Source of the DNA: Arthrobacter cryoconiti
GTDB taxonomy: Bacteria; Actinomycetota; Actinomycetes; Actinomycetales; Micrococcaceae
Assembly (NCBI RefSeq): GCF_020905375.1
Contig: NZ_JAJJBU010000003.1
Location: 62,001-126,000, forward strand
DNA: 64,000 bases
Direction: 5' to 3'
Shown here piece by piece: positions 3,981-59,890 of the stretch. The notes beneath the pieces were generated by a model. The model searched no databases. It saw nothing but the letters and a program-made list of their open reading frames with translations, and had not been told where the DNA came from. How positions within the stretch are numbered: position 1 is the stretch's first letter; every line of letters starts with the position of its first letter. Position numbers and translations under genes: made by a program.

Positions 3981-4041
3981 GTGCCCCTGATGTAACCGAG
4001 CGTTGGGGGAGAGTGCCCCTGATGTAACCGAGCGTCAGGGG
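3981..4041 (-). repeat. Two copies of ACGCTCGGTTA intergenic hairpin repeat
   Basis: Two 29-bp units 32 bp apart, in minus orientation (cores 3993-4003 and 4025-4035), between the converging isomerase and XPB genes. The second copy folds into a 7-bp stem (CCCCTGA with TCAGGGG) and supplies the first base of the complement of the XPB stop codon. The 127 bp upstream of the pair, after the isomerase stop, shows nothing else recognisable. Confidence 0.85.
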
Positions 4042-5702
4042 GCGTCGATGATGCGGTAGGCGTAGCCCTGTTCGGCCAGGAAACGCTGGCGTTTGGCGGC
4101 GAAGTCTGCGTCCACCGTGTCACGGGCTACGAGGGTGTAGAACGTTGCCGTGCGGCCGTCCTCTTTGGGACGCATGAGTCGCCCCAGTCGCTGTGCTTCC
4201 TCCTGGCGTGAGCCGAAGGACCCTGAAACCTGGATAGCCACGGAAGCTTCCGGGAGATCGATTGAAAAGTTGGCGACCTTTGAAACAACTAATGTCTTGA
4301 TGATCCCCTGCCGGAATTCTTCAAAGAGCTGTTGGCGCCGCTTCACGCTGGTCTCTCCCTTAATTAGAGGTGCGTGAAGCCGTTCGGAAATCTCGTCGAG
4401 TTGGTCGATGTATTGCCCGATCACCAGCAGTTGTTCCCCTGCGTGTTGGGCAGCTAATTTTTCCACGACATCAGTTTTGCTCTCAGAGGTGGCGCACAAA
4501 CGGTACTTCTGGGAATCGTCCGCCATGGCGTACGTCATGCGCTCGTCGGCGGGTAGATCAATCCGGACCTCTATGCAATCTGCCGGAGCGATGTACCCCT
4601 GAGCCTCAATGTCCTTCCATGGGGCGTCGTACCGCTTGGGCCCGATCAGTGAAAACACTTCTCCCTCCCGGCCGTCCTCGCGCACGAGGGTCGCTGTCAG
4701 CCCCAGCCGCCGTCGAGCTTGCAGATCAGCGCTCATGCGGAAGATGGGGGCGGGCAGTAGATGCACTTCGTCGTAGATGATCAGCCCCCAGTCGTTGTCG
4801 TTGAGCAGTTCCAGGTGCGGGTAAAGACCGCCTCGGCGGGTGGTCAGGACCTGGTAGGTGGCGATCGTGACAGGCCGTACTTCCTTGGCGGCGCCTGAAT
4901 ACTCACCGATCTCCGCCTCCGTGAGCGAAGTCCGGCGCAGCAGTTCTGCCTTCCACTGTCTGGCCGAGACAGTGTTCGTGACCAGGATCAGCGTAGTGGT
5001 GCCAGAGACCGCCATGGCTGCTGCACCAACGATCGTTTTGCCGGCACCGCAGGGCAGTACGATCACGCCCGATCCGCCGGCCCAGAAATTCTCCACCGCC
5101 ATCGCTTGATAGGGGCGCAGGGACCAAGCGCCCAGAGACGCGCCTGTTGAGTCCACAGCGTCCGCATCCCCCGCCGTGAGCGTAATCGGATGCGGAGTAC
5201 CGTCAACGTACCCGGCGAGATCCTCTGCCGGCCAGCCAGCTTTGAGCAGCAACGCCTTGAGCTCACCTCGCTGCGAGGAATGGACCACAACCGTCTGTGC
5301 GTCAATGAGCGGACCCAGCAGAGGCGCGATCTTCTTTGCGTGCATGACCTCCTCCAGTATGGGGAAGTCTGTGGTGCGCATGACCAGTCCGTGCACGGGG
5401 TCTTTTTCAAGACGCAGACGCCCGTAACGCGACATTATTTCGGCAATGTCGATCAGCAGTGGATGTGGCACGGGGAAGCGGGAATAGCGCAGCAATGTGT
5501 CCAGTACCTGTTCGGCGTCCAGCCCAGCGGCCCGAGCATTCCACAGCCCCAGGGGCGTGAGCCGATAGCTGTGCATATGTTCCGGGGCCCGCTCCAACTC
5601 GGCAAACGCAGCGATCGCATGGCGTGCTTCCGTAGCCTGCGGATGACCGATCTCCAGCAGGATGGTCTTATCGCTTTGGACGATCAACGGCCCGTCATTC
5701 AT
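4035..5702 (-). CDS. XPB-type DNA repair helicase
   Basis: A superfamily 2 helicase of 555 residues, orthologous in type to mycobacterial Rv0861c (Ercc3). Visible motifs in order: Walker A PCGAGKT at 217-223, DEVH box at 311-314, LTAT at 335-338, the XPB-specific RED motif at 341-343, and motif VI QRLGR at 504-508. The first 190 residues are the damage-recognition/N-terminal part. It unwinds DNA 3' to 5' in repair; its bacterial role is poorly defined. Its start overlaps the stop of the upstream helicase-associated gene by 4 bp (ATGA), so the two are translationally coupled. Confidence 0.95.
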   Translation of the reverse strand: MNDGPLIVQSDKTILLEIGHPQATEARHAIAAFAELERAPEHMHSYRLTPLGLWNARAAGLDAEQVLDTLLRYSRFPVPHPLLIDIAEIMSRYGRLRLEKDPVHGLVMRTTDFPILEEVMHAKKIAPLLGPLIDAQTVVVHSSQRGELKALLLKAGWPAEDLAGYVDGTPHPITLTAGDADAVDSTGASLGAWSLRPYQAMAVENFWAGGSGVIVLPCGAGKTIVGAAAMAVSGTTTLILVTNTVSARQWKAELLRRTSLTEAEIGEYSGAAKEVRPVTIATYQVLTTRRGGLYPHLELLNDNDWGLIIYDEVHLLPAPIFRMSADLQARRRLGLTATLVREDGREGEVFSLIGPKRYDAPWKDIEAQGYIAPADCIEVRIDLPADERMTYAMADDSQKYRLCATSESKTDVVEKLAAQHAGEQLLVIGQYIDQLDEISERLHAPLIKGETSVKRRQQLFEEFRQGIIKTLVVSKVANFSIDLPEASVAIQVSGSFGSRQEEAQRLGRLMRPKEDGRTATFYTLVARDTVDADFAAKRQRFLAEQGYAYRIIDAP

Positions 5703-8032
5703 GGGGTCTCCTTCGTGGCTTCAGGGATCTTTTCCGCCGTGATGATCCGGCTGACGGGAATCCATTGCTCATGGCCGGCGTCGGGCACGCTCACGCGCAG
5801 CCGGCCTTCGATGAGTGCCAACGGGCGCACCACTAACCGCACTTCGCCTCCGTCGCTACCTGCCATTGTCAACTGGGTGAGAGCTCCGGTGGCAACAGCA
5901 TGACTCAATCGTTCTTGCACCAGCGCCGTCGCGGACTCGCCATGCCCAGGGCTCCATGCGGGCCGGCTGCGCAGCAACGCCAGCTGTTCGTGCCTCGGGT
6001 CCAGAGGTACGACGCCGAGGTCCCCGCCAGTCTCGATTCTGGCCCTGGCCGCGGCTGCTTCATAGGGGGCGAGCGTGGCGTGCTCTGCGGGTTCTCTGGG
6101 GCGTTTCACACGCGTGGGATTGGCGCGAATGGCAAGATCACCGTTGGCTAAAGAGGCATTGACGCCGATGGCGCGCAGTGCCTTGTCGACTTCGGCAGGG
6201 GGCAGAGCGGAGATGGCGACCGTGGGTGCGATCAGCGTAAATCGCACGAGTGCACCGATGTCCCCGGCCAGCAGCTCCGCGAGTCGAGCAGGAGTGTCAG
6301 TGGTGATGAAGGTGGAAGCGGCACCGAGCATGATGCGTCCGTGCCGGGCGGCAGCGTCCTTGATGAGGTATCCAAGAGGCTGTGGGATTGGAGTGGTTGA
6401 GTGCTTACTTAAGAAGGCCGTGATGTCCGCCTCGGAGCGTCCGGCCGTGAATCCGCGTCCAAGCGACGCAGTACTGAAACGGTAGATGCCAGCGGCGCCT
6501 TTGCCTTCCGTGTCAGCGATCAGCGCGAGCTCACCGGATAGCGCGGGAGAGAGATAACCGGGGGCGATCGCGGTGAGATCGCCCTGCAACAGGACGTGCT
6601 CAACCGGCTTGGGCAGGGCCTGGTCCACGAGTGCCAACGCGTTCTCCCAGTCCCGTGCGATCACGGAAGCGCCCATGTCCGTCAAGGCGCTGGCGCCGGT
6701 GATTCCCAAGATCTCCGCCTCGGCCAAAAAGCCCGGAAGAGCTGCGGTGACGCGGCGGGCTGGACGCGGATAGTGCCAGGCGTAGCGTTCCCCCAGTTCC
6801 GTAATGGTCGGCGCCAGGGCGTGCGGGGGCACAGTCTTTACACGGGCGCCCCCGTAGTAGGTGCCCAGTACATCGAGCACGGTGGCGCGCAGCATGGCTG
6901 CGTCGGGGCGTAGTACGGCTCCGCTCAGGACCGTAACCACGGGCTTGCCGGAGCCCACCAGGGACGGCAGCCGAGTGGACTCCAACCAGGCAGTGACGAG
7001 CCATAACCACTGCTCGGCACGTTCACGCTGCAGCCATCCGGTTGCCGTGGGTCGCCACGTTGACGTGTCTGGATCCAGGGTCAATAGCCCGGCCATGGAA
7101 GCCAGCTCCAAGTAGAAGTACAGTTGTGCCACGCCGGTGTCGGTGTCCTGGCTTGCGTTGCGCACGGGACGCACGCCTACGCCGCCCGCAGCCAAGGTAG
7201 GCAGCGGAGTTCGGTTCACGGATTCGAGCAGGCTGGCCATGGTGCGCAGGAGAGTGGCGATGGCACTCAATGCCGCATTGTCTCGCAGTGAATCGGGCAC
7301 AGTGCCGATTTCCTGTTTCGCCGGGACCGGTTCAAAGTGTGAAATGACATGGCCGTGACGCAACGCCAACCCCATCTCGCGGGGCAGCTCCACATGAGAC
7401 TTGTCGATGGCCACCAAAAACCCCTTGTCCAGGAGCCAGTCTGCGGGGCCCCGGTTACCCCGGCCGAGAACGCCCAAGGGCGGGCCGGGCACTAATTTGG
7501 CCAGCAGCTCTGCAGCGCCAGCAGGCGCGTCGGCCAGCAGAGCATCTAAATCGTCGGCAAGCGTTGTTTCCGCACTGGCGCCCAGCTGGCGGTAGCTTCG
7601 GCCAAGCCCTGCAGGGTGAGAACCTAACATTTCGCGCACATTGGTCACGGGCAGGAAGTGCCGGTGACCGGCGTCGCAGGTACCGGAACTGGCCGAAGGG
7701 ATGTTGACGGCAAGGGCGTAATCGCACAATTGCGCTAAAATGGCTGTCACTTGCTGGTGAGTTGCTCCGGAAACCGCAGTGGTCACCTCGGCGACAGTTG
7801 CTCCATAATCCGGATTTGCCGTGACCACTAGAGCAGTCAGCACTTGCAGCTGGGGCCGGTTGAGACGGTCAAGTGTACGGGCTAATCCTGCCCTGCTGCA
7901 GGCACGTGCCGCTAAGGCGGCGAAATCCACGGCGACCGGGTCCATGAGCTCAGGGCGCAATGTGAGCAGCCGCAATAAGGCAGTATCATCCCGTGCGGCA
8001 AGATCGGCGATTAACAGCGGGAGGGTGGACAT
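5699..8032 (-). CDS. Helicase-associated protein, partner of XPB (Rv0862c type)
   Basis: A 777-residue protein of the actinobacterial helicase-C-associated family that is regularly encoded next to XPB. It begins with STLPLLIADLAARDD, and runs as an alpha-rich protein with winged-helix-like segments and no Walker motifs. A late block near the C-terminus (ARAARIETGGD, PLDPRHEQLALL) resembles the shared helicase-associated domain. The ATG at 8032 is preferred over a TTG two codons earlier; neither has a strong Shine-Dalgarno. Overlap with the XPB start implies a fixed stoichiometry and probably a complex (inference). Confidence 0.85.
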   Translation of the reverse strand: MSTLPLLIADLAARDDTALLRLLTLRPELMDPVAVDFAALAARACSRAGLARTLDRLNRPQLQVLTALVVTANPDYGATVAEVTTAVSGATHQQVTAILAQLCDYALAVNIPSASSGTCDAGHRHFLPVTNVREMLGSHPAGLGRSYRQLGASAETTLADDLDALLADAPAGAAELLAKLVPGPPLGVLGRGNRGPADWLLDKGFLVAIDKSHVELPREMGLALRHGHVISHFEPVPAKQEIGTVPDSLRDNAALSAIATLLRTMASLLESVNRTPLPTLAAGGVGVRPVRNASQDTDTGVAQLYFYLELASMAGLLTLDPDTSTWRPTATGWLQRERAEQWLWLVTAWLESTRLPSLVGSGKPVVTVLSGAVLRPDAAMLRATVLDVLGTYYGGARVKTVPPHALAPTITELGERYAWHYPRPARRVTAALPGFLAEAEILGITGASALTDMGASVIARDWENALALVDQALPKPVEHVLLQGDLTAIAPGYLSPALSGELALIADTEGKGAAGIYRFSTASLGRGFTAGRSEADITAFLSKHSTTPIPQPLGYLIKDAAARHGRIMLGAASTFITTDTPARLAELLAGDIGALVRFTLIAPTVAISALPPAEVDKALRAIGVNASLANGDLAIRANPTRVKRPREPAEHATLAPYEAAAARARIETGGDLGVVPLDPRHEQLALLRSRPAWSPGHGESATALVQERLSHAVATGALTQLTMAGSDGGEVRLVVRPLALIEGRLRVSVPDAGHEQWIPVSRIITAEKIPEATKETP

Positions 8033-8059
8033 CGTCAAGTGTGTTGGCCTAGCGCCGGC

Positions 8060-8299: not shown

Positions 8300-8499
8300 G
8301 TCCATAACGCTAACAGCGGACAGGTAGCGCACAAAGCGGCTGCTGATTCCCCAACGCGGTAATCTAGAAGGTAAGAGACCAGCTCGGCTGGCGCCTGTAG
8401 GTACCAGCTGCACGTTTCACAGCTTTCCGGTACCGCGAATCAAGTCCCGCGCAGGCGCAGGAAGAGATCCCCACTGATGAAATATATGAGGTAGAGCAA

Positions 8500-8880: not shown

Positions 8881-8882
8881 CG

Positions 8883-9458: not shown

Positions 9459-9475
9459 GAAGCGTGCATGAGCAT

Positions 9476-9520: not shown

Positions 9521-9548
9521 GTGCACTAGTCAGTTGCGCCGGTGGCGG

Positions 9549-10820
<1,272 letters not shown>

Positions 10821-11721: not shown

Positions 11722-11950
11722 CCGAGTCTTGCCTTCAAAAATTGGTTTATTGAATTTTAGGCAAGGACGGGGGAACCACCATTGGCGGACCGTGAGGTCT
11801 GTCTTGGGGTGAAGCCCGGCAACAACACTCATCCTTTCCACTGATGCACGCTCTCCGGGGCAGCGCTATGGATGGCTGTGTGCCACAGCCGGGCCGGGTC
11901 AATTAGTAGTACTCTCTGGCCCGAATCCGACAGCTAACTCCGTAGGTGCC
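11722..11950 (+). promoter_or_regulatory. Cyclic di-AMP riboswitch (ydaO/yuaA class), copy 1
   Basis: The conserved blocks of the class appear in order: GGGGGAACC at 11769-11777, TTGGGGTGAAG near 11804-11814, and CCGAATCCGACAGCTAAC at 11921-11938 followed by CCGTAGG. A hairpin TCTTGCC/GGCAAGGA opens the element. CTCTCT (11912-11917) can pair with AGAGAG (11954-11959), part of the Shine-Dalgarno of the M23 gene, so ligand binding may act on translation (inference). In actinobacteria this class typically controls cell-wall hydrolase genes, as here. Confidence 0.88.
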
Positions 11951-11966
11951 ACTAGAGAGGCAATTT

Positions 11967-12907: not shown

Positions 12908-13108
12908 CCTAGCTCTGCCACCGCTCGTGGTCCGTTCGTAACAATCGTCTGGCAGGGGCGGGGGAACCAATATCGGGCTTCTTGCATGTTGAGAGGTCCT
13001 AGGGGTTAAGTCGCTAAAGCTTTCACTCGAAGGAACTATTCTTCAAGTCATTGAACCAAGCGGCCGGGTGACTCCCATCCGAATCCGACAGCTTACCTCG
13101 CAGGCTTT
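12908..13108 (+). promoter_or_regulatory. Cyclic di-AMP riboswitch (ydaO/yuaA class), copy 2
   Basis: Same order of blocks as copy 1: GGGGGAACC near 12960, CTAGGGGTTAAG near 13000, and CCGAATCCGACAGCTTAC at 13079-13096 followed by CTCGCAGG. CTCCC (13072-13076) pairs with GGGAG (13109-13113) at the Shine-Dalgarno of the downstream gene. A weak promoter candidate, TTGTTA at 12838 and CGTAAT at 12861, lies just upstream, so this copy may have its own transcript. Confidence 0.88.
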
Positions 13109-13123
13109 GGGAGAGGATCCTTC

Positions 13124-17523: not shown

Positions 17524-18768
17524 ATGGTGTTGGGGCCTCCCGCCATGCCGACGCGTGGAACGGACGATGTAGCCCATGGGCACTCGCATGAGCTTGCGCC
17601 GACGTGGGAAGAAGCACGTGCCAAAGCGTATGAGGTGGCTGAACCGCTGCCCTCTCGCGGTGTAGCACTGGCAAGCGCCACCGGGTACATACTGGGCGTG
17701 GACGTCTGTGCCGTGCACGATATGCCGCACTATGCGTCCTCGGCTATGGACGGGTGGGCTGTCGCGGGCAGTCCTCCCTGGATCTTGGCTGAGCGGGGCA
17801 GCCGCCTCAGCCCAGGCCAGGCTGCACCGATCGTCACCGGCGGGCTCCTTCCCCACGGGGCAAAGGCCGTTCTGCGTAGCGAGTCTGGGAGTCTCTCCAC
17901 TGACGAAGAAGGACTTCCAATTCTGGTGCTCGGTGGCGGAGCGCGCCCGGGCGAACCCAAAAATGGACAGCATATTCGCCCGGCTGGTCAGGAGGCTCGC
18001 AGTTTAGACCTGCTGATCAAGGCCGGAACGACTCTCAACCCGGCCCATATTGCCTTGGCGGCGCTCGGTGGTCTCGACGCGCTAGACGTTCTCGGCAGGC
18101 CCTCCGTCCAGCTCGTGTTCACCGGTGACGAGGTGGTGGCGGCGGGTATTCCAGCTCCCGGGTTCGTCCGGGATGCCTTCACCCCCCAGTTAGGGGGAGT
18201 CGTGGAGGCGCTGGGAGGTTCCGTGGTGGGGCTTCGCCGTGCGAGCGACAACTTGGAATCGATGCTCGAGGCGCTGGCGGACAACGAAGACAATCCGGCC
18301 GATGTCATTGTCACAACGGGTGCGACAGGGCGTTCCAGCGCAGACTTCCTGAGGGCGGCGATTACACAAATGGGGGCGAAGATGCATGTGGCAAACATCG
18401 CCATGCGTCCGGGACACCCGAGCCTTTTAGCCGAATTCCCTGATGGGAGGTTCCTTGTGGGGCTGCCAGGCAATCCGTTGGCAGCCATGATCGGCCTGCT
18501 GACGCTCGGCGCGCCATTGTTGGCGAGACTGGGCAGCCTTGCGATGCCAGCTACCTTTGAAGTGCCGTGCGGCTCGCCCATCAAAGAGTCCGCAGGGCCC
18601 ACACGGCTGATGCCCTACCGGCTGGTGTACGGGCTGGCTTCGCCGTGCGCATTCACTGACTCGGCCATGATGAGGGGACTGGCAGCAGCCGACGGCGTCA
18701 TGGTGGTGCCGCCGCACGGAGCGAAAATGGGCGAGAGTCTGCAGGCCTTCGCTTTGCCTTGGAAGTAA
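17524..18768 (+). CDS. moeA: Molybdopterin molybdenumtransferase
   Basis: Inserts molybdate into adenylated molybdopterin. The 414-residue protein has the MoeA order of domains: an N-terminal domain with ASSAMDGWAV (about residue 75), a central MoCF-binding domain with VFTGDEVV, TTGATGRSSADF and GLPGNPLAAM (about residue 325), and a C-terminal beta domain. TTGATGR departs from the more common TTGGVS/TGGTS loop. Six bases separate it from DUF6457. A start a few codons later (ATG 17545) is possible. It converges on an Lrp gene across a four-copy repeat array. Confidence 0.9.
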   Translation: MVLGPPAMPTRGTDDVAHGHSHELAPTWEEARAKAYEVAEPLPSRGVALASATGYILGVDVCAVHDMPHYASSAMDGWAVAGSPPWILAERGSRLSPGQAAPIVTGGLLPHGAKAVLRSESGSLSTDEEGLPILVLGGGARPGEPKNGQHIRPAGQEARSLDLLIKAGTTLNPAHIALAALGGLDALDVLGRPSVQLVFTGDEVVAAGIPAPGFVRDAFTPQLGGVVEALGGSVVGLRRASDNLESMLEALADNEDNPADVIVTTGATGRSSADFLRAAITQMGAKMHVANIAMRPGHPSLLAEFPDGRFLVGLPGNPLAAMIGLLTLGAPLLARLGSLAMPATFEVPCGSPIKESAGPTRLMPYRLVYGLASPCAFTDSAMMRGLAAADGVMVVPPHGAKMGESLQAFALPWK

Positions 18769-18776
18769 CCCACCTC

Positions 18777-18900
18777 CGACGCTCGGTTACTTTCGGGGCT
18801 GTTTTTCCCGACGCTCGGTTAGATTAGGGGCTGTTTTTCCCGACGCTCGGTTAGATTAGGGGCTGTTTCCTTCGACGCTCGGTTAGATCCGAGGTTGTCG
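18777..18900 (+). repeat. Four tandem copies of ACGCTCGGTTA intergenic hairpin repeat
   Basis: Cores at 18779-18789, 18811-18821, 18843-18853 and 18875-18885, spaced exactly 32 bp. Copies 1 and 2 are followed by GGGGCTGTTTTTCC, which resembles a terminator tail for moeA. The array fills the interval between converging moeA and Lrp genes. Confidence 0.9.
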
Positions 18901-18912
18901 GAGTGCAAGTGA

Positions 18913-19344: not shown

Positions 19345-19471
19345 GTACACAATGTACGCCGCGACGGTGTGTTCTGAGTAGTAACTATACGATATGTGTC
19401 TAATTTGTGTATTGATTATGCAGATCGTCATTCCGTACAGTGAAATCACCAGTGTGATTGAAAGGAACGTA

Positions 19472-20500
19472 ATGACGCGCTTTGTGGATGTCAGAAATAT
19501 GGCTAGGTGGGCAGCGACTCGCGGGCCGGAAAATATCCTTGCCGAGATGGCCGGATATGTGGAAGACGACTTCCGCCGCTGGGAGGAGTTCGATAAGAAG
19601 CCCCGCGTCGCCAGCCACACGCCTTTTGGGGTCATTGAGCTGATGCCGGCTAGCGACCGTGACACTTACGGCTTCAAATACGTCAATGGGCACCCGTCGA
19701 ATCCTGCGCGAGGCTTTCAGACGGTGACAGCCTTTGGTGCGCTGGCCGACGTCCATAACGGCTACCCCACCTTCATGTCTGAGATGACGCTGTTGACGGC
19801 GTTCCGTACAGCCGCCACTTCAGCCATGGTGGCGAAGAAGCTTGCCCGCCCAGACTCGAAGACGTTGGCGCTCATTGGCGCCGGTAGCCAGTCAGAATTT
19901 CAAGCACTCGCTTTCCGCAGTGTCCTGGGAATTGAGCGGCTGACCGTGTGGGATACGGACCCGGAGGCCATGGAGAAATTCGTAAGGAATATGGCGCCAC
20001 TGGGATTCGAGATCAGGGTAGCTAGCAGCGCACGGGACGCGGTGCGGGGAACCGATATTGTCACCACATGCACAGCAGATAAAGCGAACGCGGACGTCCT
20101 TACTGCGGACATGGTGGAACCTGGCATGCACATCAATGCCATGGGCGGCGACTGCCCCGGTAAGACAGAACTGGACCCGGTAATCCTTGAGCGCGGGCGC
20201 GTCTTCGTTGAATTTGAACCTCAGACTCGTATTGAGGGAGAGATCCAGCAGATGCCAGCTGACTTTCCCGTCACGGAGTTCTGGACTGTGCTTACCTCCG
20301 CAGCTCCCGGACGGACAGCTAAGAACCAAGTCACCATCTTTGACTCCGTGGGCTTCGCCATTGAGGACTTCTCAGCACTTCGATACGTGCGCGACGCCGT
20401 GGATGGTACTAACTTCTACGATGAGATTGATCTTGTGGCCAACCCGGAGGACCCCAAAGACCTCTTTGGTCTCATCGGTGCATTGGTCCCGCAAACCTAA
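19472..20500 (+). CDS. Ornithine cyclodeaminase/mu-crystallin family enzyme
   Basis: Probably converts ornithine to proline and ammonia with bound NAD. From the ATG at 19472 (AAAGGAA upstream) the protein has 342 residues, typical of the family. The NAD-binding Rossmann segment LALIGAGSQSEFQ, the LTAFRTAATSAMVAKKL segment and the HINAMGGDCPGKTEL segment fit bacterial ornithine cyclodeaminases. The frame extends upstream without a ribosome site. The Lrp gene is divergent. Ornithine would link to the arginine/guanidino genes at 46-52 kb, although they are not adjacent. Other family members act on other amino acids. Confidence 0.87.
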   Translation: MTRFVDVRNMARWAATRGPENILAEMAGYVEDDFRRWEEFDKKPRVASHTPFGVIELMPASDRDTYGFKYVNGHPSNPARGFQTVTAFGALADVHNGYPTFMSEMTLLTAFRTAATSAMVAKKLARPDSKTLALIGAGSQSEFQALAFRSVLGIERLTVWDTDPEAMEKFVRNMAPLGFEIRVASSARDAVRGTDIVTTCTADKANADVLTADMVEPGMHINAMGGDCPGKTELDPVILERGRVFVEFEPQTRIEGEIQQMPADFPVTEFWTVLTSAAPGRTAKNQVTIFDSVGFAIEDFSALRYVRDAVDGTNFYDEIDLVANPEDPKDLFGLIGALVPQT

Positions 20501-20544: not shown

Positions 20545-20590
20545 GCGTTGGGGGGAAGTGCCCCGGTTGTAACCGAGCGTTGGGGGGAGG
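20545..20590 (-). repeat. Single ACGCTCGGTTA intergenic hairpin repeat
   Basis: Minus-orientation copy with core at 20570-20580, flanked by CCCC and GGGG that can pair around the core. A partial GCGTTGGGGGG copy lies just before it. It sits between the converging ornithine cyclodeaminase and lipoprotein genes. Confidence 0.8.
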
Positions 20591-20594: not shown

Positions 20595-21008
20595 CTACTT
20601 CACGCCGGCATATTGACGAATTTGGCCCACGGTAGGAGTCACGGCGAGTCCGACGGCGGTGGGCCGGATACCGGTTTTCTCGGCACCTTCGTTGAACACA
20701 TAGTAGGCAACGGAGGTGGTGGCATCTACGTCGGCCGAAGCATCTGCGAACGCGCGGAGTGATTCTGCCATGACCTTTTCCAGATCCGCATCCGCGGCGG
20801 CAGTGATCCGAATGCTAATGCTGGTGCTCATGCCGGCGGTGTTGTAGTAATTATTTGACGTGGACACCACTCCGGGGACGTTGCCAAGGGCAGTGTCTAT
20901 GCCCTTGAGAAATTTTTCGCTGTTGAAGCTGCTGCCGCAACCGCCTAGAAGTGATGCAAATAATCCCATGAGAAGAACCATACTCAGTCTGCGGGTCAAC
21001 GTGCGCAT
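20595..21008 (-). CDS. Small putative lipoprotein
   Basis: A 137-residue protein with a basic start (MRTLTRRL), a hydrophobic stretch and the lipobox LLGGC, Cys24 being the likely lipidated residue. The mature part has alternating polar strands (STSISIRITAAADADLEKVM) but no recognised domain. It starts six bases after the WXG-lipase stop and is probably the last gene of a three-gene operon, so it may be an accessory or immunity factor to the lipase (speculative). Confidence 0.7.
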   Translation of the reverse strand: MRTLTRRLSMVLLMGLFASLLGGCGSSFNSEKFLKGIDTALGNVPGVVSTSNNYYNTAGMSTSISIRITAAADADLEKVMAESLRAFADASADVDATTSVAYYVFNEGAEKTGIRPTAVGLAVTPTVGQIRQYAGVK

Positions 21009-34997: not shown

Positions 34998-35070
34998 TGC
35001 CTTAGAGTACCAATGGCTATCGAATGGAACAAGTCATTGTCAGATGGCGGCGTGCCGTTTCAATGCATGG

Positions 35071-35114
35071 CAGGACGTGCCAGAGCAGCGCTAGCGCGGT
35101 CCAGGACGTGCCAG
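35071..35114 (+). repeat. Short direct repeat, CAGGACGTGCCAG twice
   Basis: Two exact 13-bp copies at 35071-35083 and 35102-35114, 31 bp apart (three helical turns), upstream of a lipoprotein gene. Same-face spacing suggests a regulator-binding pair, but nothing else supports this. Confidence 0.5.
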
Positions 35115-35238
35115 GGCAGGGCCCTAGTTGGGTCGGCGGCAGGCTATACGGCAAACTTATTCCATGGCACTTTCTCCTCGGCCCACCGTGCGGCACGTTG
35201 CGGGCGCTAAGCGTGCCTCAAACGGCCCTGGGTCACTC

Positions 35239-44868: not shown

Positions 44869-45028
44869 TGGCGAAACCCTTTGTGAGTGCTCTTGCCCGC
44901 TCCGGTTTGTCTTTAGTTCCGCCGCGGGCCACTTCTTCATCCGAGCCACCCTGTGAACATGGGGTTGGCGTGCGACAAGTCGGAGCTTGACATCGCATCT
45001 CATGAAGCTGGATTCAGAGTACCGCTTT

Positions 45029-46702: not shown

Positions 46703-46809
46703 CCTAACAGGCTAAACTGTGATGGTGGTTACAGTCAATACATGGCTGCAGTCGCTGGACGTATAGAGTCACGATGGGCATGAATTGCCAAAGACTTCAA
46801 GGAGCGAAG

Positions 46810-47394
46810 ATGAAAGCACTGCCAGTGGAGCCCAGCTCGGCGCCGGTTGCCATTGGCTCGCGCATCCGCGCGGCACGCCAAGCTCAGCGACTCACCATTG
46901 AGCATGTGGCGGACGCGACCGGTCTGACGAAGGGCTTTTTGAGCCGTGTCGAGCGCGATCTGACCTCTCCTAGTGTGTCGTCCTTGGTCACCTTGTGCCA
47001 AGTCTTGTCGATTTCCATCGGGGACTTGTTCGCTGTGCCCGAGACGCATCTGACACTTCGCGGGGAGGGCCCGCGGATCTCCCTAGGCGGAGAGGGAATT
47101 GTGGAACGGTTGCTCACGGCACGTTCGGAACGACGCCTGCAGATCCTCGGCACGACCATCGGCCCCTTTGGCCGGGGTGAATCCGAGTTGTATGCCGTGG
47201 ATTGCGATGTGGACGTCCTGCACATCATCAGTGGGGAACTGACATTGATTATGACGCAAGATTCGTACGATTTGAAGGCCGGGGATACCTTGTCCTTCCC
47301 GGGCCGCGAGCCGCACTCCTGGGAAAACCGCTCCGCCACACCCGTTGAAGCGCTATTCATCCTGGTCCCCGCAGCGTCCGGGGCTGCTGGATAA
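46810..47394 (+). CDS. XRE-family regulator with cupin domain (PuuR-like)
   Basis: A 194-residue regulator. Residues 17-75 form an XRE helix-turn-helix (IGSRIRAARQAQRLTIEHVA, then KGFLSRVERDLTSPS); residues 115-185 form a cupin sensor (ELYAVDCDVDVLHIISGELTL, LKAGDTLSFPGREPHSWEN). This architecture matches PuuR, the putrescine-responsive repressor of Escherichia coli. AAGGAG precedes the ATG at 46810. It diverges from the symporter gene and shares an operator-like sequence with the agmatinase promoter, so it is likely the local regulator. Confidence 0.9.
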   Translation: MKALPVEPSSAPVAIGSRIRAARQAQRLTIEHVADATGLTKGFLSRVERDLTSPSVSSLVTLCQVLSISIGDLFAVPETHLTLRGEGPRISLGGEGIVERLLTARSERRLQILGTTIGPFGRGESELYAVDCDVDVLHIISGELTLIMTQDSYDLKAGDTLSFPGREPHSWENRSATPVEALFILVPAASGAAG

Positions 47395-47404
47395 CCACTC
47401 CCAA

Positions 47405-47495
47405 CCCGACGCTCGGTTACTTTCGGGTCCCTTTTGCCCGACGCTCGGTTAGAAACGGGCCCTTTTGCCCGACGCTCGGTTAGAAACGGGTCCCT
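47405..47495 (+). repeat. Three tandem copies of ACGCTCGGTTA intergenic hairpin repeat
   Basis: Cores at 47409-47419, 47441-47451 and 47472-47482 (spacing 32 and 31 bp), filling the gap between the converging regulator and APC permease genes. Copy 2 pairs as GCCCG with CGGGC, copy 1 as CCCGA with TCGGG. Each is followed by CCCTTTT. Confidence 0.9.
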
Positions 47496-47496
47496 T

Positions 47497-49476
47497 TTAG
47501 CCGACGTGGACCCAAGGACGTTGCGTCAGGTCAGGCTCTGCCTCCCGCAGCACTTCTCGCGTGACGGGCGCGATCTCGCCTTCGCCGGTGAACATGAACT
47601 TGATCATGTTCGTGATCGGGTTTCCCTCGTTCCAGCGGAAGTAGATATGTGGAATCAGACCGGTGGCGTCGCGCACATGAAGCAAGACTGCGGCGATTGT
47701 ATTGGGGACATTGGAACCGTGGACCTCAAGTATTTTGAAGCCGTGGCGGACCACGCCGCGCACTTCCAAGGCTGTCTCAAAGTCGGAGGAGTCATCCACG
47801 ATAACTTCCATAAAGAGAACTTGGCGAGGATCGCCGATCTGGTTGACAGCGGCCGCGTGGTTGAGTTTACGGCGGTACGCGGCGGCATTGCGCGTCTTGG
47901 GGTCGTGGGAGATGAACCTGATGGTGCCCTCATCGACGGCGGCCACAAACGACATGGCGTGTTCGTCCATGCGAATGTAGGTGGCGCGCAGTTCAAACGC
48001 CCGGCGGAACCGTGAGAGCAAGCTGACCAAAATGATGCCCAGGATGAAAAGTAAAGCAATTTTCAGCCCGTCCGGGCGTTCGATCGAGTTTGCCACGGTG
48101 GTGTAGAGGAATGCCACGGAGACTGCGCCAAAACCAAAGGTCTTGACGCGCTCCTTCTTGCGCCTGGCAGAGAGCGTCACGGCGATGGCAGCGGATGTGA
48201 TCAGTACCAACACTCCGGTGGCATACGCGCCTCCCTGAGCATCGACGTCGGCCTTGAATGCCACGGTAATGATGATGGCGATGACAGCGAACACCAAGAC
48301 CAGCGGGCGCACCGCCCCGGCCCATTCCGGAGCCATGCCGAAGCGAGGCAAGTACCTGGGCACCAGATTGAGTAGCCCTGCCATCGCGGAAGCCCCCGCA
48401 AACCAGAGGATGGCGATGGTGCTGATGTCATAGACGGTGCCGAAACCCTCGCCGAGGAGATCGTGGGCAAGAAAGGCAAGTGCGCGCCCATTAGCGGCAC
48501 CGCCGGGCTGGAATTCCGCGACAGGAATGAGGATGGTCGTAGCAAGTGAGGACGTGATGAGGAAGGTGCTCATAATGACCGCGGCGCTCGTCAGCAGCTT
48601 GTGCGCACCACGGATGCGCCCCTCCGGGTTTTCCTCGGTGTCGCTGGCAGGGCCTTTGATCTGTGGCATGACAGCCACGCCGGTTTCAAATCCTGACAGA
48701 CCCAGTGCCAAACGCGGAAAGACTAGAAGGGCGACGGCGACCACCATGACTGGGTTGCCGTGCTGGGTTGTCAGCGCTGTCCACCAGTCTGCGGTCAGTA
48801 AGGGGCTCCCGGCGACGTGGAACAACGCAACAGAAATGACCACCAGGTTAAGACTCAAGAACACGGCGACAAGGACCACGGCAATGCTGATGGCCTCCTT
48901 GAAACCTCTCAGGAACACGATGGCCAAGGCGGTGATGAGCACTAGGGTGATGATGATGTTTTGTCCGTGCAAGAAACTGGGGGCAAAAGGATTTTCTATC
49001 ACGTGAGCTGAAGCATCGGCAGCTGAGAGGGTGATGGTGATCATGAAATCTGTGGCGGCAAATCCCAGTAGCGCCAAGACGAATAATTTGCCCCACCAAC
49101 GGGGGAGCAGGTTTTGCAACATGGCGATGGAACCGGCTCCGCGGGGACTCTCTCGGGCCACCCTTTTATAGACCGGCAATGCGCCAAAAAGGGTCACGAG
49201 GACCAAGACGATGGTGGCCAGTGGTGCCAGCACGCCTGCGGCGAGAGCCGCGATGGCAGGCTGGTAGCCAAGAGTTGAAAAGTAATCCAGGCCGGTCAGG
49301 CACATGACTCGCCACCACGAGTGCGGTTTGTCGCTGGGCTTGGGCCGACCGTGCGGACCCTGGCGCTTTCCGGAGCTTTCGGGCAGGCCTTCCATGAGCC
49401 ACAGCCGCAGGGCCTGTTTTCTAGTGGGCTTGGTGCGATCTCCCGGGTCCGATGGTGCGTGGGCGAGGGATGTCAC
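47497..49476 (-). CDS. APC-family permease with cytosolic C-terminal domain
   Basis: A 659-residue transporter of the amino acid-polyamine-organocation superfamily. About 12 helices span residues 50-490 ([36 protein letters not shown]). A cytosolic domain of about 160 residues follows ([18 protein letters not shown] to PWVHVG), which is not universal in APC proteins and might sense a ligand. GTG at 49476 follows AAAGGAA. It diverges from agmatinase and shares its operator region, pointing to a guanidino or polyamine substrate; a KimA-like potassium role cannot be excluded. Confidence 0.85.
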
Positions 49477-49644
49477 GAGAAATTCCTTTCGGCCGTGCAC
49501 GCACGGCGGCTGAACCGCTCGACGGCGGCAGAGTGAGACTAGCACCGGATTTTGGTCAGAGAGCACATCTTGACGAAATCTTTACGCGAGCCCAATGATC
49601 CGTGGTCAAACTCACCTAGATCTTTATCCAAGGAAAACTTTTGG

Positions 49645-53374: not shown

Positions 53375-53411
53375 CAGGCCCCAACCCTAACGTGATGACG
53401 GGCTCCGCGGC

Positions 53412-55441: not shown

Positions 55442-55464
55442 ACCGACCATAAAAGAAGGCGCCC

Positions 55465-55872
55465 TCACCTCTCGAAACGCGCGAACTTCGTGATGGCAAC
55501 GGGAGTGATGGGGGTGAAGAAGTTCACCAGGTTACCGTCGGGGTCCCGGAACAAAACAGAGCGGTTTCCCCAAGGGAGCGTCGTCGGTGCACTGACAAAT
55601 TCATCGACCCAGCCTTGAAGCTTCTTGTACTCGGCATCGACGTCCTCAACCAGGAACTCGATGATCACCGAATGGTTGTCGGCTGGGCGGGCAGCCCCTG
55701 GGCCGAAGAGGCCCACGGTACGAGTACTACCGATCGCCAAGGTGCCCTGGGGGGTTGCGAGTTCGGCAAAGTCTTCATTTGGCCGACTCGCTACAGCACC
55801 GGTGGCGCGCTCGTAGAACGTCACTAGACGCTGGACGTCATCAGTGATCACACGCAGGGAGACAAGATTCAT
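55465..55872 (-). CDS. VOC family protein (glyoxalase/bleomycin resistance fold)
   Basis: A 135-residue vicinal-oxygen-chelate protein. It has two beta-alpha-beta-beta-beta modules (VSLRVITDDVQRLVTFYERATG; SVIIEFLVEDVDAEYKKLQ), ending in FRDPDGNLVNFFTP. The metal-ligand Glu in the first module is present (DFAELATPQG), and Glu in EFLVEDVD. Substrate unknown. The ATG at 55872 gives the family start MNLVSLRVI. It converges on the WYL regulator with 23 bp between stops. Confidence 0.88.
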   Translation of the reverse strand: MNLVSLRVITDDVQRLVTFYERATGAVASRPNEDFAELATPQGTLAIGSTRTVGLFGPGAARPADNHSVIIEFLVEDVDAEYKKLQGWVDEFVSAPTTLPWGNRSVLFRDPDGNLVNFFTPITPVAITKFARFER

Positions 55873-56005
55873 GAGAGGCTCTTTCGACAAAAGTGGTGTG
55901 CAGCGGTCGCTGCCACCATTCACTATCCCGCCTCGCGACGACAACGCCCTGTCGGTGTTTACGAACTATTCGGGAACAAAAAGATGCGAACGGCGTCCTG
56001 CGTTA

Positions 56006-56057
56006 TTGAACGCGTTCAAAATTTCTGTCATACTCATATTTGAACACGTTCAAATAT
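56006..56057 (+). promoter_or_regulatory. TetR promoter with twin palindromic operators
   Basis: Two near-identical palindromes, TTGAACGCGTTCAA (56006-56019) and TTGAACACGTTCAA (56040-56053), the latter within a 22-bp inverted repeat (56036-56057). TTGAAC at 56006-56011 and CATACT at 56029-56034 are 17 bp apart, giving a promoter whose -35 overlaps operator 1 and whose start region overlaps operator 2. Likely autorepression by the TetR encoded just downstream. Confidence 0.8.
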
Positions 56058-56072
56058 GAGGAAGTGAACCAC

Positions 56073-56726
56073 GTGGCTGGTGACAAGAGCGAGCAAACCA
56101 AGGATCTGGTCCTTCAGACTGCCCTCGGCATGTTAAGGACCAGGGGCTACGCGAAGACCACCATGCGGGCTATTGCGGCCGAGGCAGGGGTCTCGCTCGG
56201 TAGCGCCTATTACTACTTTGCGTCCAAAGACGAACTGGTCCTGGAGCTGTACCGCGAATCCGTTCTGGAGCAGAGAGCTGCGGCAAACACGGCATTGGCC
56301 GGCAGGAAGGGACTGTCCGATCGCCTGAAAGTTGCCTTGCACGCTGGCGTTCAGGCCTTGAATCCCTACCATCACTTCGGCGGGGCATTCATTGCCAGTG
56401 CGCTGCCACCCCATACCGCAGTCAACCCTTTTGGTGCAGCTTCTACACAAGCGCGGGAGGAAGCCATTGCAATCTTCGCTGACGTCATTGACGGCACCAA
56501 AATTCCGGCTTACCTGCGGTCCCAACTGCCGGAACTGCTGTGGCTGGCCTATATGGGTATCGTGCTCTTCTGGGTGTATGACCACTCAGAAGACCAGCGC
56601 CGAACTCACACTCTCATTGACGGTGCCGCTGCGCTCATTGCCAAGCTAGTGGCTCTTTCGCGATTGCCCGTCGTGAAGCCGCTGGTTGAAGAGGCCTTGG
56701 CGCTCAAGGCCAGGGTGCAATCATGA
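56073..56726 (+). CDS. TetR family transcriptional regulator
   Basis: From GTG 56073 (GAGGAAG nine bases upstream) it has 217 residues. The helix-turn-helix is SEQTKDLVLQTALGMLRTRGYAKTTMRAIAAEAGVSLGSAYYYFASKDE. The C-terminal domain may bind a lipophilic ligand. It carries twin operators in its own promoter and overlaps the next gene, a TIGR01777 protein, by 4 bp, so both form one autoregulated operon. Confidence 0.92.
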   Translation: MAGDKSEQTKDLVLQTALGMLRTRGYAKTTMRAIAAEAGVSLGSAYYYFASKDELVLELYRESVLEQRAAANTALAGRKGLSDRLKVALHAGVQALNPYHHFGGAFIASALPPHTAVNPFGAASTQAREEAIAIFADVIDGTKIPAYLRSQLPELLWLAYMGIVLFWVYDHSEDQRRTHTLIDGAAALIAKLVALSRLPVVKPLVEEALALKARVQS

Positions 56727-57613
56727 AAACGGTGATAATCGCAGGCGCATCCGGCTTTATTGGCCAGCATTTTCGTCGCGAGTTTGAAGCCGCAGGATGG
56801 CGGGTACGTACGGTGGGACGCGCAGCAGACGCCGTCTGGGGTGACACCGCTGGGATCACCAACTTGCTAGAAGATACCGAATTGCTCATCAATCTTGCCG
56901 GAAAGTCGGTCTCATGCCGTTATAACTTACGCAACAAAGCGGAGATTTTTCGTTCCCGTTTGGAGACCACGGAAGAGCTGGCCCTGGCGGTACAAGCGTG
57001 TCAAAACCCGCCGCGTGACTGGTTCAACGCCAGCACGGCCACCATCTACCGGGATGCGCGTGACCGTCCCCAAACCGAGGACGACGGCGAGCTCGGCTCC
57101 GGCTTTTCCGTGGACGTGGCCCGGGGCTGGGAAGCGGCACTAGATGCCGTCCCGACGCCAAAAACTCGCAGGATCCCGCTGCGAATGTCCATTGTCATGG
57201 GTGACGGCGGCGGTGTGATGCGTCCATTCGTCAACCTGGCACGGCTTGGCTTAGGTGGATGCATGGGCGACGGCGGCCAAAAATACAGCTGGATCCATGT
57301 GAGCGACCTGTTTAGTGCCGTGATGTTTATACATCAGCATCCACAGATGACCGGCCCCATGAACATTGCTGCCCCGGAAGCTGTGGCAAACTCTGAACTA
57401 ATGTCCCAGGTCCGCACGGCAGTCGGAGTGCGGTGGGGGTTTCGAACTCCGGCATGGTTACTGTCCATGGGGGCCATGTTGATTGGTACGGAAACCGAAC
57501 TTGTCCTCAAAAGCCGCTGGGTGGCGCCTGCCAAACTGCAGGACGCAGGATTCGAGTGGCGATATTCGTGCCTTCACGAAGCGCTCGCCGACATCCAGCC
57601 AAGGTCCCGCTGA
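56723..57613 (+). CDS. TIGR01777-family epimerase/NAD-dependent protein
   Basis: A 296-residue extended SDR-like protein. GASGFIGQHF is the NAD(P)-binding turn near the N-terminus; INLAGKSVSCRYN and the C-terminal region FEWRYSCLHEALAD are typical of the TIGR01777/DUF1731 family. Reaction unknown. Translation is coupled to the preceding TetR by an ATGA overlap, so expression probably depends on that repressor. Confidence 0.85.
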   Translation: MKTVIIAGASGFIGQHFRREFEAAGWRVRTVGRAADAVWGDTAGITNLLEDTELLINLAGKSVSCRYNLRNKAEIFRSRLETTEELALAVQACQNPPRDWFNASTATIYRDARDRPQTEDDGELGSGFSVDVARGWEAALDAVPTPKTRRIPLRMSIVMGDGGGVMRPFVNLARLGLGGCMGDGGQKYSWIHVSDLFSAVMFIHQHPQMTGPMNIAAPEAVANSELMSQVRTAVGVRWGFRTPAWLLSMGAMLIGTETELVLKSRWVAPAKLQDAGFEWRYSCLHEALADIQPRSR

Positions 57614-57697
57614 TATGGGCGTGGACGCGCACTAGACGCCATGGGCAGAACGGGCGTTCGGCGATTGCCTAGGAGTTCTTTCCGATAGGCTCTCACC

Positions 57698-59713
57698 ATG
57701 ACTGCTGCCTCTTCGATGACCGTGACTACCCGCAACGTCGAGATGGCAACGTTGGGACCGGAATCGCCGCTGCCGTCGGTGCAACCGTTGCTTGAAGGTC
57801 CCTATACGGTGGGGGACACCTTGCCGGCAGATATTGCTGGCGGTGCGCGGTGGGGGCATGCCGCCAACATGTTTCCGTATCCCCTGCAGGACGCCTACAC
57901 GCGAGAGAGCAGCGCAACGGCGCTGACCGCCGTCGTACTTGAAAACGATCACGTGAAAGCGACGTTCCTGCCGCAGCTGGGTGGTCGGCTGTGGTCGCTC
58001 ATTGATAAGGCCAGCGGCAAGGAGTTGCTGCACACGGGGGACCGCATTCAATTTGCCAACTTGGCGTTGCGTAATGCCTGGTTCGCTGGTGGGATTGAAT
58101 ACAACATTGGCACGCGCGGGCATTCACCCACCACCTGCTCGCCACTCCACAGTGCCATTGTGCGCACTCCGGAAGGCCAGGAAGTTCTGCGCATGTGGGA
58201 GTTTGACCGTCTGCGCGAAGTGGTGTTTCAACTTGATGCGTGGCTTCCCTCCGATTCCAAAGTGCTTTTCGTCGCCGTGCGCATCCAAAACCCCAATGAC
58301 GTCACCGTACCTATGTACTGGTGGAGCAACGCCGCGATCCCACAGACCCCTGCGACTCGGGTAATCGCCCCCGCTACCCGCGCTTACGCCACCGATTATG
58401 ACGGTTCAATGGCGATCGTGGAGCCCACATCGTTCCACGGGATCGATGCCACCTGGCCTGCACGCAATCCGCAAGCTGCCGACTTCTTCTTCGACTTGGC
58501 TCCGCAAGAACGGCGTTGGGAAGTGGCGGTGGATTGCGACGGCGACGGGCTTGGCCTCATATCCTCCTCGCAGTTACGGGGACGCAAGCTATTTGTTTGG
58601 GGCGAAAACACGGGCGGACACCGCTGGCAGGAGTGGCTCACCCCGTCCGACGGCGCTGACCGGCACTATGCCGAGATTCAGTCCGGTCTCTCGCAAACGC
58701 AGTTTGAACATCTACCCCTGCCCGCGGGGGAGTCGTGGCAGTGGGTAGAGGCATACGGCAATGCAGCCTTGGATCCTGCTCTCGCAGGAGGAAGCTGGAA
58801 AGCGGCCGTGGCCCATGGGGCGCAACGCGTTGAGGAGCTCCTCTCCGAAGCGGCTGTAGACGCCGCGCTCGCCAACGCCGCCGCGTGGGCAGATCTTGCC
58901 CCGGACGAGATGCTGGTCGCTGGCAGCGGTTGGGGCGCACTGGAACGTGAGCGGCGTGTGGCAGCCAAACTGGATTGGCTCGACGAAACCGGAACGCCCT
59001 TCGCAACGGAGACACTGACGGCCGCTCAGGCACCGTGGTTGGAACTGCTGAGAGCCAATGCCGGGATTGTGGAGAAACCGTTTGAACCCTCCGCAGCAGC
59101 AGTGGTGAGTCAGCCGTTTGCTGGGGCGGAGTCTTTTGTTCGCGGCCTGGACTGGGAAGATCTACTCACAGCCGGGCGGAATAAGAGTGCCGAGGCGCTG
59201 CTGCATCACGCCGTAATGGTCCATGCTCGGGCGGACGGCGCCAGCTTCGGCGACATGGGGACGGTGGCGTCACTTTACCGCCGTGCGCTGGCTGAGTGCT
59301 CCCTCGCCACGAGTAGTCGCGCGCTGGCTCGGCGCGGGCTCGGCTTGGCTCTGATCTCCTCAGGAGATGTGGCCGGGGGCATCGAAGCGCTCACGGAGGC
59401 GTGCGCCGTGGATCCAAGTAACCGTTGGATCTTGGTGGAAGCCATGACTTTGGCCATCGCCCACGGTTTCCCCGCGCAGGCGCTTGCTTTGGTGGAGCAG
59501 GCCCCCAAATCCGTGGTCGACGTCGGACGCGTGAAGTTCCTGAGCGCACTCGCACATGCTCGCAACGGCGAGGCGGAGTTCGCGGCCGAAATTCTTCGTG
59601 CCGGGGTAGAAGTTTTTGACCTTCGGGAAGGCGAAAACTCCATCACCAACTTGTGGCAGGAAGTGTGTCCCGGTGAAGACGTGCCGCGTGCGTACCAGTT
59701 CAGTATGCGCTGA
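57698..59713 (+). CDS. DUF5107 domain protein with TPR-like C-terminal half
   Basis: A 671-residue protein. The first 340 residues fit the DUF5107 galactose-mutarotase-like beta fold: VKATFLPQLGGRLWSLIDKASGKELLH, GGIEYNIGTRGHSPTTCSPLHSA and PMYWWSNAAIPQTPATRVIAPA. The remainder (from about 470) is helical, with TPR-like repeats (LLHHAVMVHARAD, SLYRRALAECSLATSSRALARRGLGLALIS). Found in actinobacterial carbohydrate loci, possibly binding or processing glycans; function unproven. It has no signal peptide. Confidence 0.85.
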   Translation: MTAASSMTVTTRNVEMATLGPESPLPSVQPLLEGPYTVGDTLPADIAGGARWGHAANMFPYPLQDAYTRESSATALTAVVLENDHVKATFLPQLGGRLWSLIDKASGKELLHTGDRIQFANLALRNAWFAGGIEYNIGTRGHSPTTCSPLHSAIVRTPEGQEVLRMWEFDRLREVVFQLDAWLPSDSKVLFVAVRIQNPNDVTVPMYWWSNAAIPQTPATRVIAPATRAYATDYDGSMAIVEPTSFHGIDATWPARNPQAADFFFDLAPQERRWEVAVDCDGDGLGLISSSQLRGRKLFVWGENTGGHRWQEWLTPSDGADRHYAEIQSGLSQTQFEHLPLPAGESWQWVEAYGNAALDPALAGGSWKAAVAHGAQRVEELLSEAAVDAALANAAAWADLAPDEMLVAGSGWGALERERRVAAKLDWLDETGTPFATETLTAAQAPWLELLRANAGIVEKPFEPSAAAVVSQPFAGAESFVRGLDWEDLLTAGRNKSAEALLHHAVMVHARADGASFGDMGTVASLYRRALAECSLATSSRALARRGLGLALISSGDVAGGIEALTEACAVDPSNRWILVEAMTLAIAHGFPAQALALVEQAPKSVVDVGRVKFLSALAHARNGEAEFAAEILRAGVEVFDLREGENSITNLWQEVCPGEDVPRAYQFSMR

Positions 59714-59785
59714 CACGGTGAACGGATAGCGAGCACACTTCCGACGGGTAGCGAGCCCTAGCAGTTGCTCGGGACTCTCCACCCC

Positions 59786-59890
59786 TGCGGACGCTCGGTT
59801 ACTTTCGGGGCACTTTGGCCCAACGCTCGGTTAGCAAGCAACCGAGCGTTGGCCAAAACACCCCCGAAAGTAACCGAGCGTTGGGGCAGG
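59786..59890. repeat. Inverted pair of double ACGCTCGGTTA repeats (near-palindrome)
   Basis: Two head-to-head double units form arms of about 48 bp (59786-59833 and 59841-59890) around AGCAAGC, with few mismatches. Cores lie at 59792-59802, 59824-59834, 59840-59850 (one mismatch) and 59872-59882. The element sits between DUF5107 and the GntR promoter; it can form a large cruciform or transcript hairpin. Upstream, CGG(A/G)TAGCGAGC occurs twice near 59725 and 59749. Confidence 0.88.

What the first reader, a model, noticed from the sequence alone, without database searches (positions are those of the whole stretch)
3981..59890. Unrecognised intergenic hairpin repeat with invariant core ACGCTCGGTTA
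Fourteen copies (13 exact, one with a single mismatch) at 3993, 4025, 18779, 18811, 18843, 18875, 20570, 47409, 47441, 47472, 59792, 59824, 59840 and 59872. An exact 11-mer is expected about 0.03 times in 64 kb on both strands. Copies stack at a 31-32 bp period. The sequence around the core varies, but flanks still pair in most copies: CCCCTGA/TCAGGGG at 4025, CCCGA/TCGGG at 47409, GCCCG/CGGGC at 47441, CTCCGA/TCGGGG at 18779, CCCC/GGGG at 20570 and 59872. Compensating change around a constant loop suggests a structure kept by selection, such as a protein- or RNA-recognised hairpin. Weak copies (18811 and 18843 pair only CCC/GGG; 59792 pairs poorly) count against a strict rule. I know no named element with this core.
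Basis: partly seen in the sequence, partly recalled or inferred. Interest (0 to 1): 0.78.

Follow-up and report, generated by a model that had tools for sequence, protein, structure and literature searches.

The report
Gene-end repeats paired with a nuclease
The 11-letter repeat is the fixed part of a 32-base unit found behind gene ends in Arthrobacter-like bacteria, and the same unit brackets a gene for one kind of predicted DNA-cutting enzyme, which suggests an unrecognised repeat-plus-nuclease system that resembles, but is not, the known REP/transposase pairs.

Summary
The repeat is real: 14 copies in the window, 47 exact in the genome. The 11-mer is the fixed part of a 32-bp unit, stacked in tandem and in inward-facing arms, often just behind stop codons. 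Covariation of the flanks is not supported. The same 32-bp spacing recurs in two genera, with units that differ by species. The unit also brackets a gene whose ~325-aa product has an AbiEi-like N-terminus and a DUF559 (Vsr-like) C-terminus: 38 of 41 distinct genes have period-32 arrays on both sides, against 0 of 49 control genes. The unit beside the gene predicted the dispersed repeats of other genomes in two tests. Many DUF559 paralogs are bracketed by other palindromes; one of these is dispersed in this genome too. Best reading: a REPtron-like pair whose enzyme is a nuclease; this genome has no Y1 transposase match. Cleavage, spread and homogenisation are inferred. This genome's own copy has an in-frame stop, and G020 does not fit simply. 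No paper in the held library contains both DUF559 and inverted repeat.

The parts
3981..4040 (-). Array 1: two tandem units (cores 4025-4035 and 3993-4003) behind ORF 4035-5702(-), whose stop codon shares its last base with the first core
18774..18906 (+). Array 2: four tandem units (cores 18779, 18811, 18843, 18875), 10 nt behind the stop of ORF 17524-18768(+)
20545..20585 (-). Array 3: one unit (core 20570-20580) followed by the start of a diverged second (AACGCTTCCG), 14 nt behind ORF 20595-21008(-), which faces ORF 19394-20500(+). The stricter gene filter does not score ORF 20595-21008
47404..47507 (+). Array 4: three tandem units (cores 47409, 47441, 47472), 14 nt behind ORF 46774-47394(+), facing ORF 47497-49566(-); the matching site in G020 holds one unit
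59786..59886 (.). Array 5: inward-facing palindrome, units + 59791, + 59823, - 59839 (one mismatch), - 59871; 77 nt behind ORF 57698-59713(+)
63149..63212 (.). Palindrome of another family: two mismatches per 21-nt arm to the palindromes that bracket a DUF559 paralog of this genome (G000:C23:408644-409522); 31 nt behind ORF 61555-63117(+)

Best explanation
The copies are the dispersed part of a two-part system. Part one is a 32-bp DNA unit (ACGC, a variable stretch often ending in YCAC, then about 20 bp), in tandem and in inward-facing arms behind stop codons. Part two is a nuclease gene (AbiEi-like head, DUF559 tail) bracketed by a unit of the same kind. Shown: the repeats, their placement, the bracketing, the match between bracketing unit and genome-wide unit in the cases tested, and differing unit numbers at matching sites of related genomes. 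Inferred: the head binds the unit; the nuclease cuts or nicks there; repair from other copies multiplies and homogenises units, so that each species drifts to its own sequence while the architecture persists; new sites at gene ends arise by the same copying. Once in place the arms may also act as 3'-end structures for the host gene. It works like a REPtron, with an unrelated enzyme. In this genome the nuclease gene (G000:C17:82222-83184) has an in-frame stop, so spread may have ceased here.
For: DUF559 in four of ten ORFs scanned between inward arms, from four loci of three genomes, a fifth locus in a fourth genome; AbiEi-like N-terminus in three of three scanned. Profile search of 80 genomes. 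Period-32 arrays on both sides in 38 of 41 distinct close-tier genes, at least one side in 41 of 41; controls 0 of 49 and 7 of 49. Leaving out the five loci first met through the repeats (L131-L134, L143): 34 of 36 on both sides. Inverted words of 12 nt or more: 36 of 41 against 1 of 49. Predictions met: ACGCSGTATCACNTTTGG, read beside the gene of G006 and G014, occurs 79 and 51 times there, 2 in G002, 0 in the other 20 genomes; ACGCYATCGCAGCAATG, read in G002 and G013, occurs 17 and 14 times there, 3 in G020, 2 in G003, 0 in the other 19. 36 of 41 genomes with the closest nuclease tier have ACGCTC arrays against 2 of 29 others. Second pair in this genome: a DUF559 paralog bracketed by CAACTGACCCGCAATTA, 13 copies here at up to two mismatches, at most 2 in each of 22 relatives. 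Differing unit numbers at matching sites.
Against: No biochemical evidence. Fisher test (p 3.5e-12) ignores relatedness, and its tier cut (E 1e-140) was chosen after seeing the data; the next tiers have arrays in 0 of 10 and 1 of 10, paralog-only genomes in 1 of 9. The ACGCTC signature is blind to other units. G127 has 14 array pairs but only paralogs; G162 has 8 with a lower-tier gene. G020 has 15 copies of ACGCTCGGTTA but its close-tier gene is bracketed by ACGCTATCCCACC-type units, so there gene and repeat do not match; those units were not searched genome-wide, nor were those of G003 and G005. In G002 and G013 the reversed control is high (12 and 18). Unit and protein distances correlate weakly (Mantel r 0.32), as shared ancestry alone could give. 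The own copy is broken. No target duplication at 7 of 7 palindromes. Structure model unusable (pLDDT 41). 30 of 42 loci share one downstream neighbourhood, so the gene is mostly inherited in place. Among nine distant DUF559 genes only 2 pass the inverted-word test.
Confidence: 0.58

Rival explanations
1. The arrays are simply transcription terminators or 3'-end stabilisers of host genes, and the DUF559 gene is one more gene with such ends.
For: Arms often lie right behind stop codons and face inward; long stems in some; a stem with a T-rich tail can be drawn in 2 of 14 window units.
Against: Terminator-like sites are at chance in the two regions scanned (16 against 15.0; 17 against 16.3), and only 2 of 14 units qualify. 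Terminators need no 32-bp period, no species-wide common sequence, and no matching pair round one gene family.
Confidence: 0.16
2. Reverse causality: the repeats spread by something else (slippage, recombination, an unseen transposase), and DUF559 genes insert into or survive at such repeats.
For: The gene lies in at least six neighbourhoods, sometimes with stops inside; tandem gain and loss looks slippage-like; in G020 gene and repeat do not match.
Against: The bracketing unit matched dispersed repeats of the same genome in the three searches made for that; different DUF559 clades go with different repeats inside one genome.
Confidence: 0.2
3. Ordinary REP/REPIN elements mobilised by a Y1/HUH transposase (RAYT).
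For: Placement and dimer or cluster habits like REPs (PMC3733652, sections read).
Against: Y1_Tnp (PF01797) has no match in 56 of 58 genomes searched, the own genome included; no GTAG tag in the unit consensus.
Confidence: 0.03

Closest known systems
REPtron (REP/BIME repeats plus TnpAREP/RAYT)
   Same: Dispersed extragenic palindromic units, single, inverted or tandem, near stop codons; enzyme gene beside its cognate repeat; repeat-specific enzymes where several families coexist; enzyme gene usually not mobile (PMC3733652 sections 15 and 16; PMC8266576 introduction).
   Different: Enzyme is AbiEi-like plus DUF559, not HUH/Y1; no GTAG tag; 31-32 bp tandem period; the unit is not itself a conserved hairpin.
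CGTC-tagged REPs
   Same: Gene-end palindromes, reported to lack a dedicated transposase (PMC3733652 abstract and section 16).
   Different: CGTC arises on the complement only where G precedes the core (25 of 47 copies), at the other end of the element; the 8-9 bp stem with CCA tail described there is not seen.
TIRtrons (TIR plus TIRYT)
   Same: One gene between inverted repeats that can also occur dispersed (PMC3733652 section 16).
   Different: Enzyme again a Y1/HUH transposase.
Vsr-like DUF559 endonuclease VsrA of Caulobacter
   Same: DUF559, PD-(D/E)XK superfamily (PMC12907096, one passage).
   Different: The passage read mentions no repeats and no AbiEi-like head.

Membership tests
REP/REPtron | short extragenic repeat in many copies, near stop codons | tested here: met
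   47 exact copies; 13 of 23 arms with a scorable same-strand stop lie within 20 nt of it (7 more of the 30 arms had none), against 5% of random intergenic positions of the window
REP/REPtron | GTAG or CGTC tag beside a stem-loop | tested here: not met
   no GTAG in the consensus; CGTC on the complement in 25 of 47 and at the other end
REP/REPtron | cognate Y1/HUH transposase | tested here: not met
   PF01797 in 2 of 58 genomes, not in the own genome
REP/REPtron | enzyme gene flanked by its own dispersed repeat | tested here: met
   met with an unrelated enzyme; G020 is an exception
MITE / DDE transposon derivative | target-site duplication | tested here: not met
   no direct match above 2 nt at 7 of 7 palindromes, shifts up to 3
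DUF559 / Vsr-like nuclease | PF04480 match above the curated cut-off | tested here: met
   25.3 to 31.2 bits against 20.6 in four of the ten enclosed ORFs scanned
DUF559 / Vsr-like nuclease | nuclease fold and activity | tested here: inconclusive
   model pLDDT 41; activity cannot be tested here
Intrinsic terminator | G+C stem followed by a T tract | tested here: not met
   2 of 14 window units; site numbers at chance
Covarying structured RNA | compensatory changes above controls | tested here: not met
   one register

The most novel reading that the evidence does not exclude
A new class of repeat-nuclease element, at least in Micrococcaceae and possibly wider in Actinomycetota: each clade of AbiEi-like/DUF559 nuclease owns a palindromic repeat that it cuts, and cut-and-repair copying spreads and homogenises that repeat at gene ends. 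It would be a REPtron built on a PD-(D/E)XK nuclease, and a candidate kind of enzyme for repeat families, such as CGTC REPs, reported to lack one.
Probability: 0.38. Interest if true: 0.9.

Novelty: new variant of a known kind. Interest (0 to 1): 0.78.

Why it matters
In the REP papers read, the enzyme proposed to spread such repeats is the HUH transposase. A second, unrelated enzyme class with its own repeats would give DUF559, a family named for unknown function, a concrete substrate, explain palindromic gene-end repeats in Arthrobacter and relatives, and supply many natural enzyme/target pairs for reading how specificity changes.

Tried and rejected
Rfam: no match at the repeats at gathering score. 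RAYT/Y1: not found in the own genome. Covarying hairpin: not supported. Terminators: not supported. Target duplications: none. Structure prediction: unusable, so no fold search was made. Solved structures: no hit up to E 1. Viral contigs: 28 stretches matched a pattern, none a relative. Plasmids: three distant matches, all Arthrobacter records, at most 38.2% identity. My first strand choice for the enclosed gene of L097 was wrong; the gene is on the + strand. Seven of 30 arms had no scorable stop. The unit picker took inner remnants in some loci, and one of its 42 loci was dropped for too few partners. On checking, one search had counted two genes twice and tested its controls by a different cut for the period; one search repeats the count without the doubles and with the same cut, and its numbers are used here.

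Full report
Observation. The 11-mer occurs 14 times in the window with at most one mismatch (13 exact; shuffles 0.68 on average) and 47 times exactly in the 3.6-Mb genome, against 4 for the reversed pattern. Of 57 relatives searched with it, G020 has 15 copies and none of the others more than 2. Aligning the 47 copies shows conservation beyond the core: a unit of about AACGCTCGGTTACTTTMGGGGCACTTTTGCCC, repeated every 31-32 bp.

Anatomy. In the own-genome clusters that hold both orientations, + units come first and - units second, so the arms face inward and form palindromes, several with an inner hairpin of the type AACGCTCCCKCA..TGMGGGAGCGTT. Arms often start just behind the stop codon of the gene that runs towards them. 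By a strict gene filter, 13 of 23 arms lie within 20 nt of a same-strand stop, 3 more within 100 nt and 7 further away; 7 of the 30 arms could not be scored. Random intergenic positions of the window give 5%. In array 1 the stop codon shares a base with the unit. Matching sites of related genomes differ in unit number: G020 has one unit where the window has three (47409-47482), and other pairs differ likewise. The proposed hairpin does not covary beyond controls, few units look like terminators, and seven palindromes show no target duplication.

Spread. A degenerate pattern scanned over one genome for each of 84,980 species gave 46 stretches, all from four Arthrobacter records: A. silviterrae DSM 27180, A. 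sp. SDTb3-6, A. wenxiniae AETb3-4 and A. psychrochitiniphilus GP3; records of the own genome may be left out by the tool. Contig lengths suggest that G004, G010, G018 and G020 are these strains. A sequence profile found a variant, ACGCTCGGTTGCAACCGGGGC, in G018 and G021. Other species of the genus use ACGCTCCCKCA at the same spacing. A pattern that asks only for two ACGCTC 32 bp apart reaches 4 or more in 16 of 23 genomes of genus g1 (which holds the window) and in 51 of 77 of genus g10 (my count from the table), up to 108 per genome; genomes of the other genera show 0 to 4. The reversed control is mostly 0 to 2, but 12 in G002 and 18 in G013.

The partner gene. Ten ORFs lying between inward arms were scanned; four matched DUF559 in their C-terminal part above the curated cut-off (25.3 to 31.2 bits against 20.6), from L071 and L121 (A. 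silviterrae/G004), L086 (SDTb3-6) and L039 (G021). A fifth locus, L097 of A. wenxiniae, holds the same gene. The three proteins scanned match AbiEi models in the N-terminal part. A profile of the four, run on 80 genomes, gives a close tier and weaker paralogs. The own genome has a close-tier copy on contig C17 with one in-frame stop, lying between its own arrays.

Bracketing. examines 84 distinct DUF559 loci by tblastn score, with 49 window genes as controls. Close tier: period-32 arrays on both sides in 38 of 41 (not in L132, L144, L180), on at least one side in 41 of 41; controls 0 of 49 and 7 of 49, five of the seven bordering the window's own arrays. Five of the 41 (L131-L134, L143) were first met through the repeats; of the other 36, found by protein similarity, 34 have both. 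Inverted words of 12 nt or more: 36 of 41 close tier, 8 of 9 intermediate, 14 of 25 paralogs, 2 of 9 distant; controls 1 of 49. By eye, palindromes on both sides are also seen in six of the nine distant loci (L203, L205, L206, L209, L210, L211) and on the one readable side of L212; none was seen in L202 and L204, where the aligned piece may not reach the gene ends. These nine come from five of the 149 genomes drawn from the phylum. A TGTGGATAA string lies upstream in 63 of 70 loci; that it resembles a DnaA box is recalled.

Prediction and test. Five genomes with the closest tier have fewer than four ACGCTC pairs, and their gene is bracketed by other units. Two of those units were searched genus-wide. 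ACGCSGTATCACNTTTGG gave 79 (G006), 51 (G014), 2 (G002) and 0 in 20 others. ACGCYATCGCAGCAATG gave 17 (G002), 14 (G013), 3 (G020), 2 (G003) and 0 in 19 others. The units of G003, G005 and G020 were not searched. G020 is a misfit: it has 15 copies of ACGCTCGGTTA, but its close-tier gene stands between ACGCTATCCCACC-type units. A paralog of the own genome is bracketed by CAACTGACCCGCAATTA, which occurs 13 times here at up to two mismatches (8 of them as pairs 55-56 bp apart, 2 beside the gene), and at most twice in each of 22 relatives. The palindrome beside a third DUF559 gene of this genome recurs in the window at 63149-63212.

Association. Of 70 genomes of the two genera, 36 of 41 with the closest tier (E below 1e-140) have at least four ACGCTC pairs, against 0 of 10, 1 of 10 and 1 of 9 in the next tiers and in paralog-only genomes. 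The cut was chosen after seeing the data, relatedness is not corrected, and other units are missed. Of the second-tier genomes, eight have their gene bracketed by period-32 units other than ACGCTC (L170-L177). By flank comparison the gene sits in at least six neighbourhoods, but 30 of 42 loci (two of them identical genes) share one downstream neighbourhood.

Interpretation. The nearest known thing is the REPtron: repeats next to stop codons, repeat-specific enzymes, an enzyme gene that is usually not mobile (PMC3733652: abstract and sections 6, 15 and 16 read; PMC8266576: abstract and introduction read). Its defining enzyme and tag are not met here, so I do not file this as a REP; I propose that it works like one, through a nuclease. 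That DUF559 proteins are nucleases rests on the family match and one passage on Caulobacter VsrA (PMC12907096). That AbiEi binds inverted repeats is recalled. Cleavage, copying and homogenisation are inferred.

Literature. In the held library no paper contains both DUF559 and inverted repeat. Listings seen: DUF559 with repeat (9 papers), DUF559 with Vsr (1), Vsr/palindromic/repeats/actinobacteria (1), AbiEi and related terms (3), Arthrobacter with palindromic or tandem repeats, the string ACGCTCGG with Arthrobacter (2), RAYT/REPIN/endonuclease (5). One passage of PMC12306157 is a table that includes Arthrobacter livingstonensis among genomes in which REP-like palindromes were counted, so palindromes in Arthrobacter have been tallied before; the rest of that paper was not read. 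Subscription journals and preprints are largely outside this library.

Noticed in passing
window 63149-63212: Palindrome of a second DUF559-linked repeat family of this genome (bracketing G000:C23:408644-409522).
   Followed up: partly
window 11738-11964 and 12936-13120 (+), 44884-45007 (-): Two c-di-AMP riboswitches and one SAM-IV riboswitch (Rfam).
   Followed up: no
window about 34998-35127: A stretch with a 31-bp self-match (22 of 32) between two ORFs, not this repeat.
   Followed up: no
L131-L160, upstream flanks: TGTGGATAA (complement TTATCCACA) lies upstream of the DUF559 gene in all 30 loci; a possible promoter part or DnaA-type site.
   Followed up: no
L131, L142, L145, L163, L172, downstream of the DUF559 gene: The hairpin behind the nuclease gene stays near ACGCTCCCYCAC..GTGAGGGAGCGT whatever the unit is, and resembles the inner hairpin of dispersed elements, as if some were internally deleted copies.
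   Followed up: no
L162 (genus g7): DUF559 paralog with many tandem ~21-bp repeats on both sides.
   Followed up: no
L116:1074-1982: Integrase-core (rve) gene near a broken copy of the DUF559 gene, both between arrays in G012.
   Followed up: no
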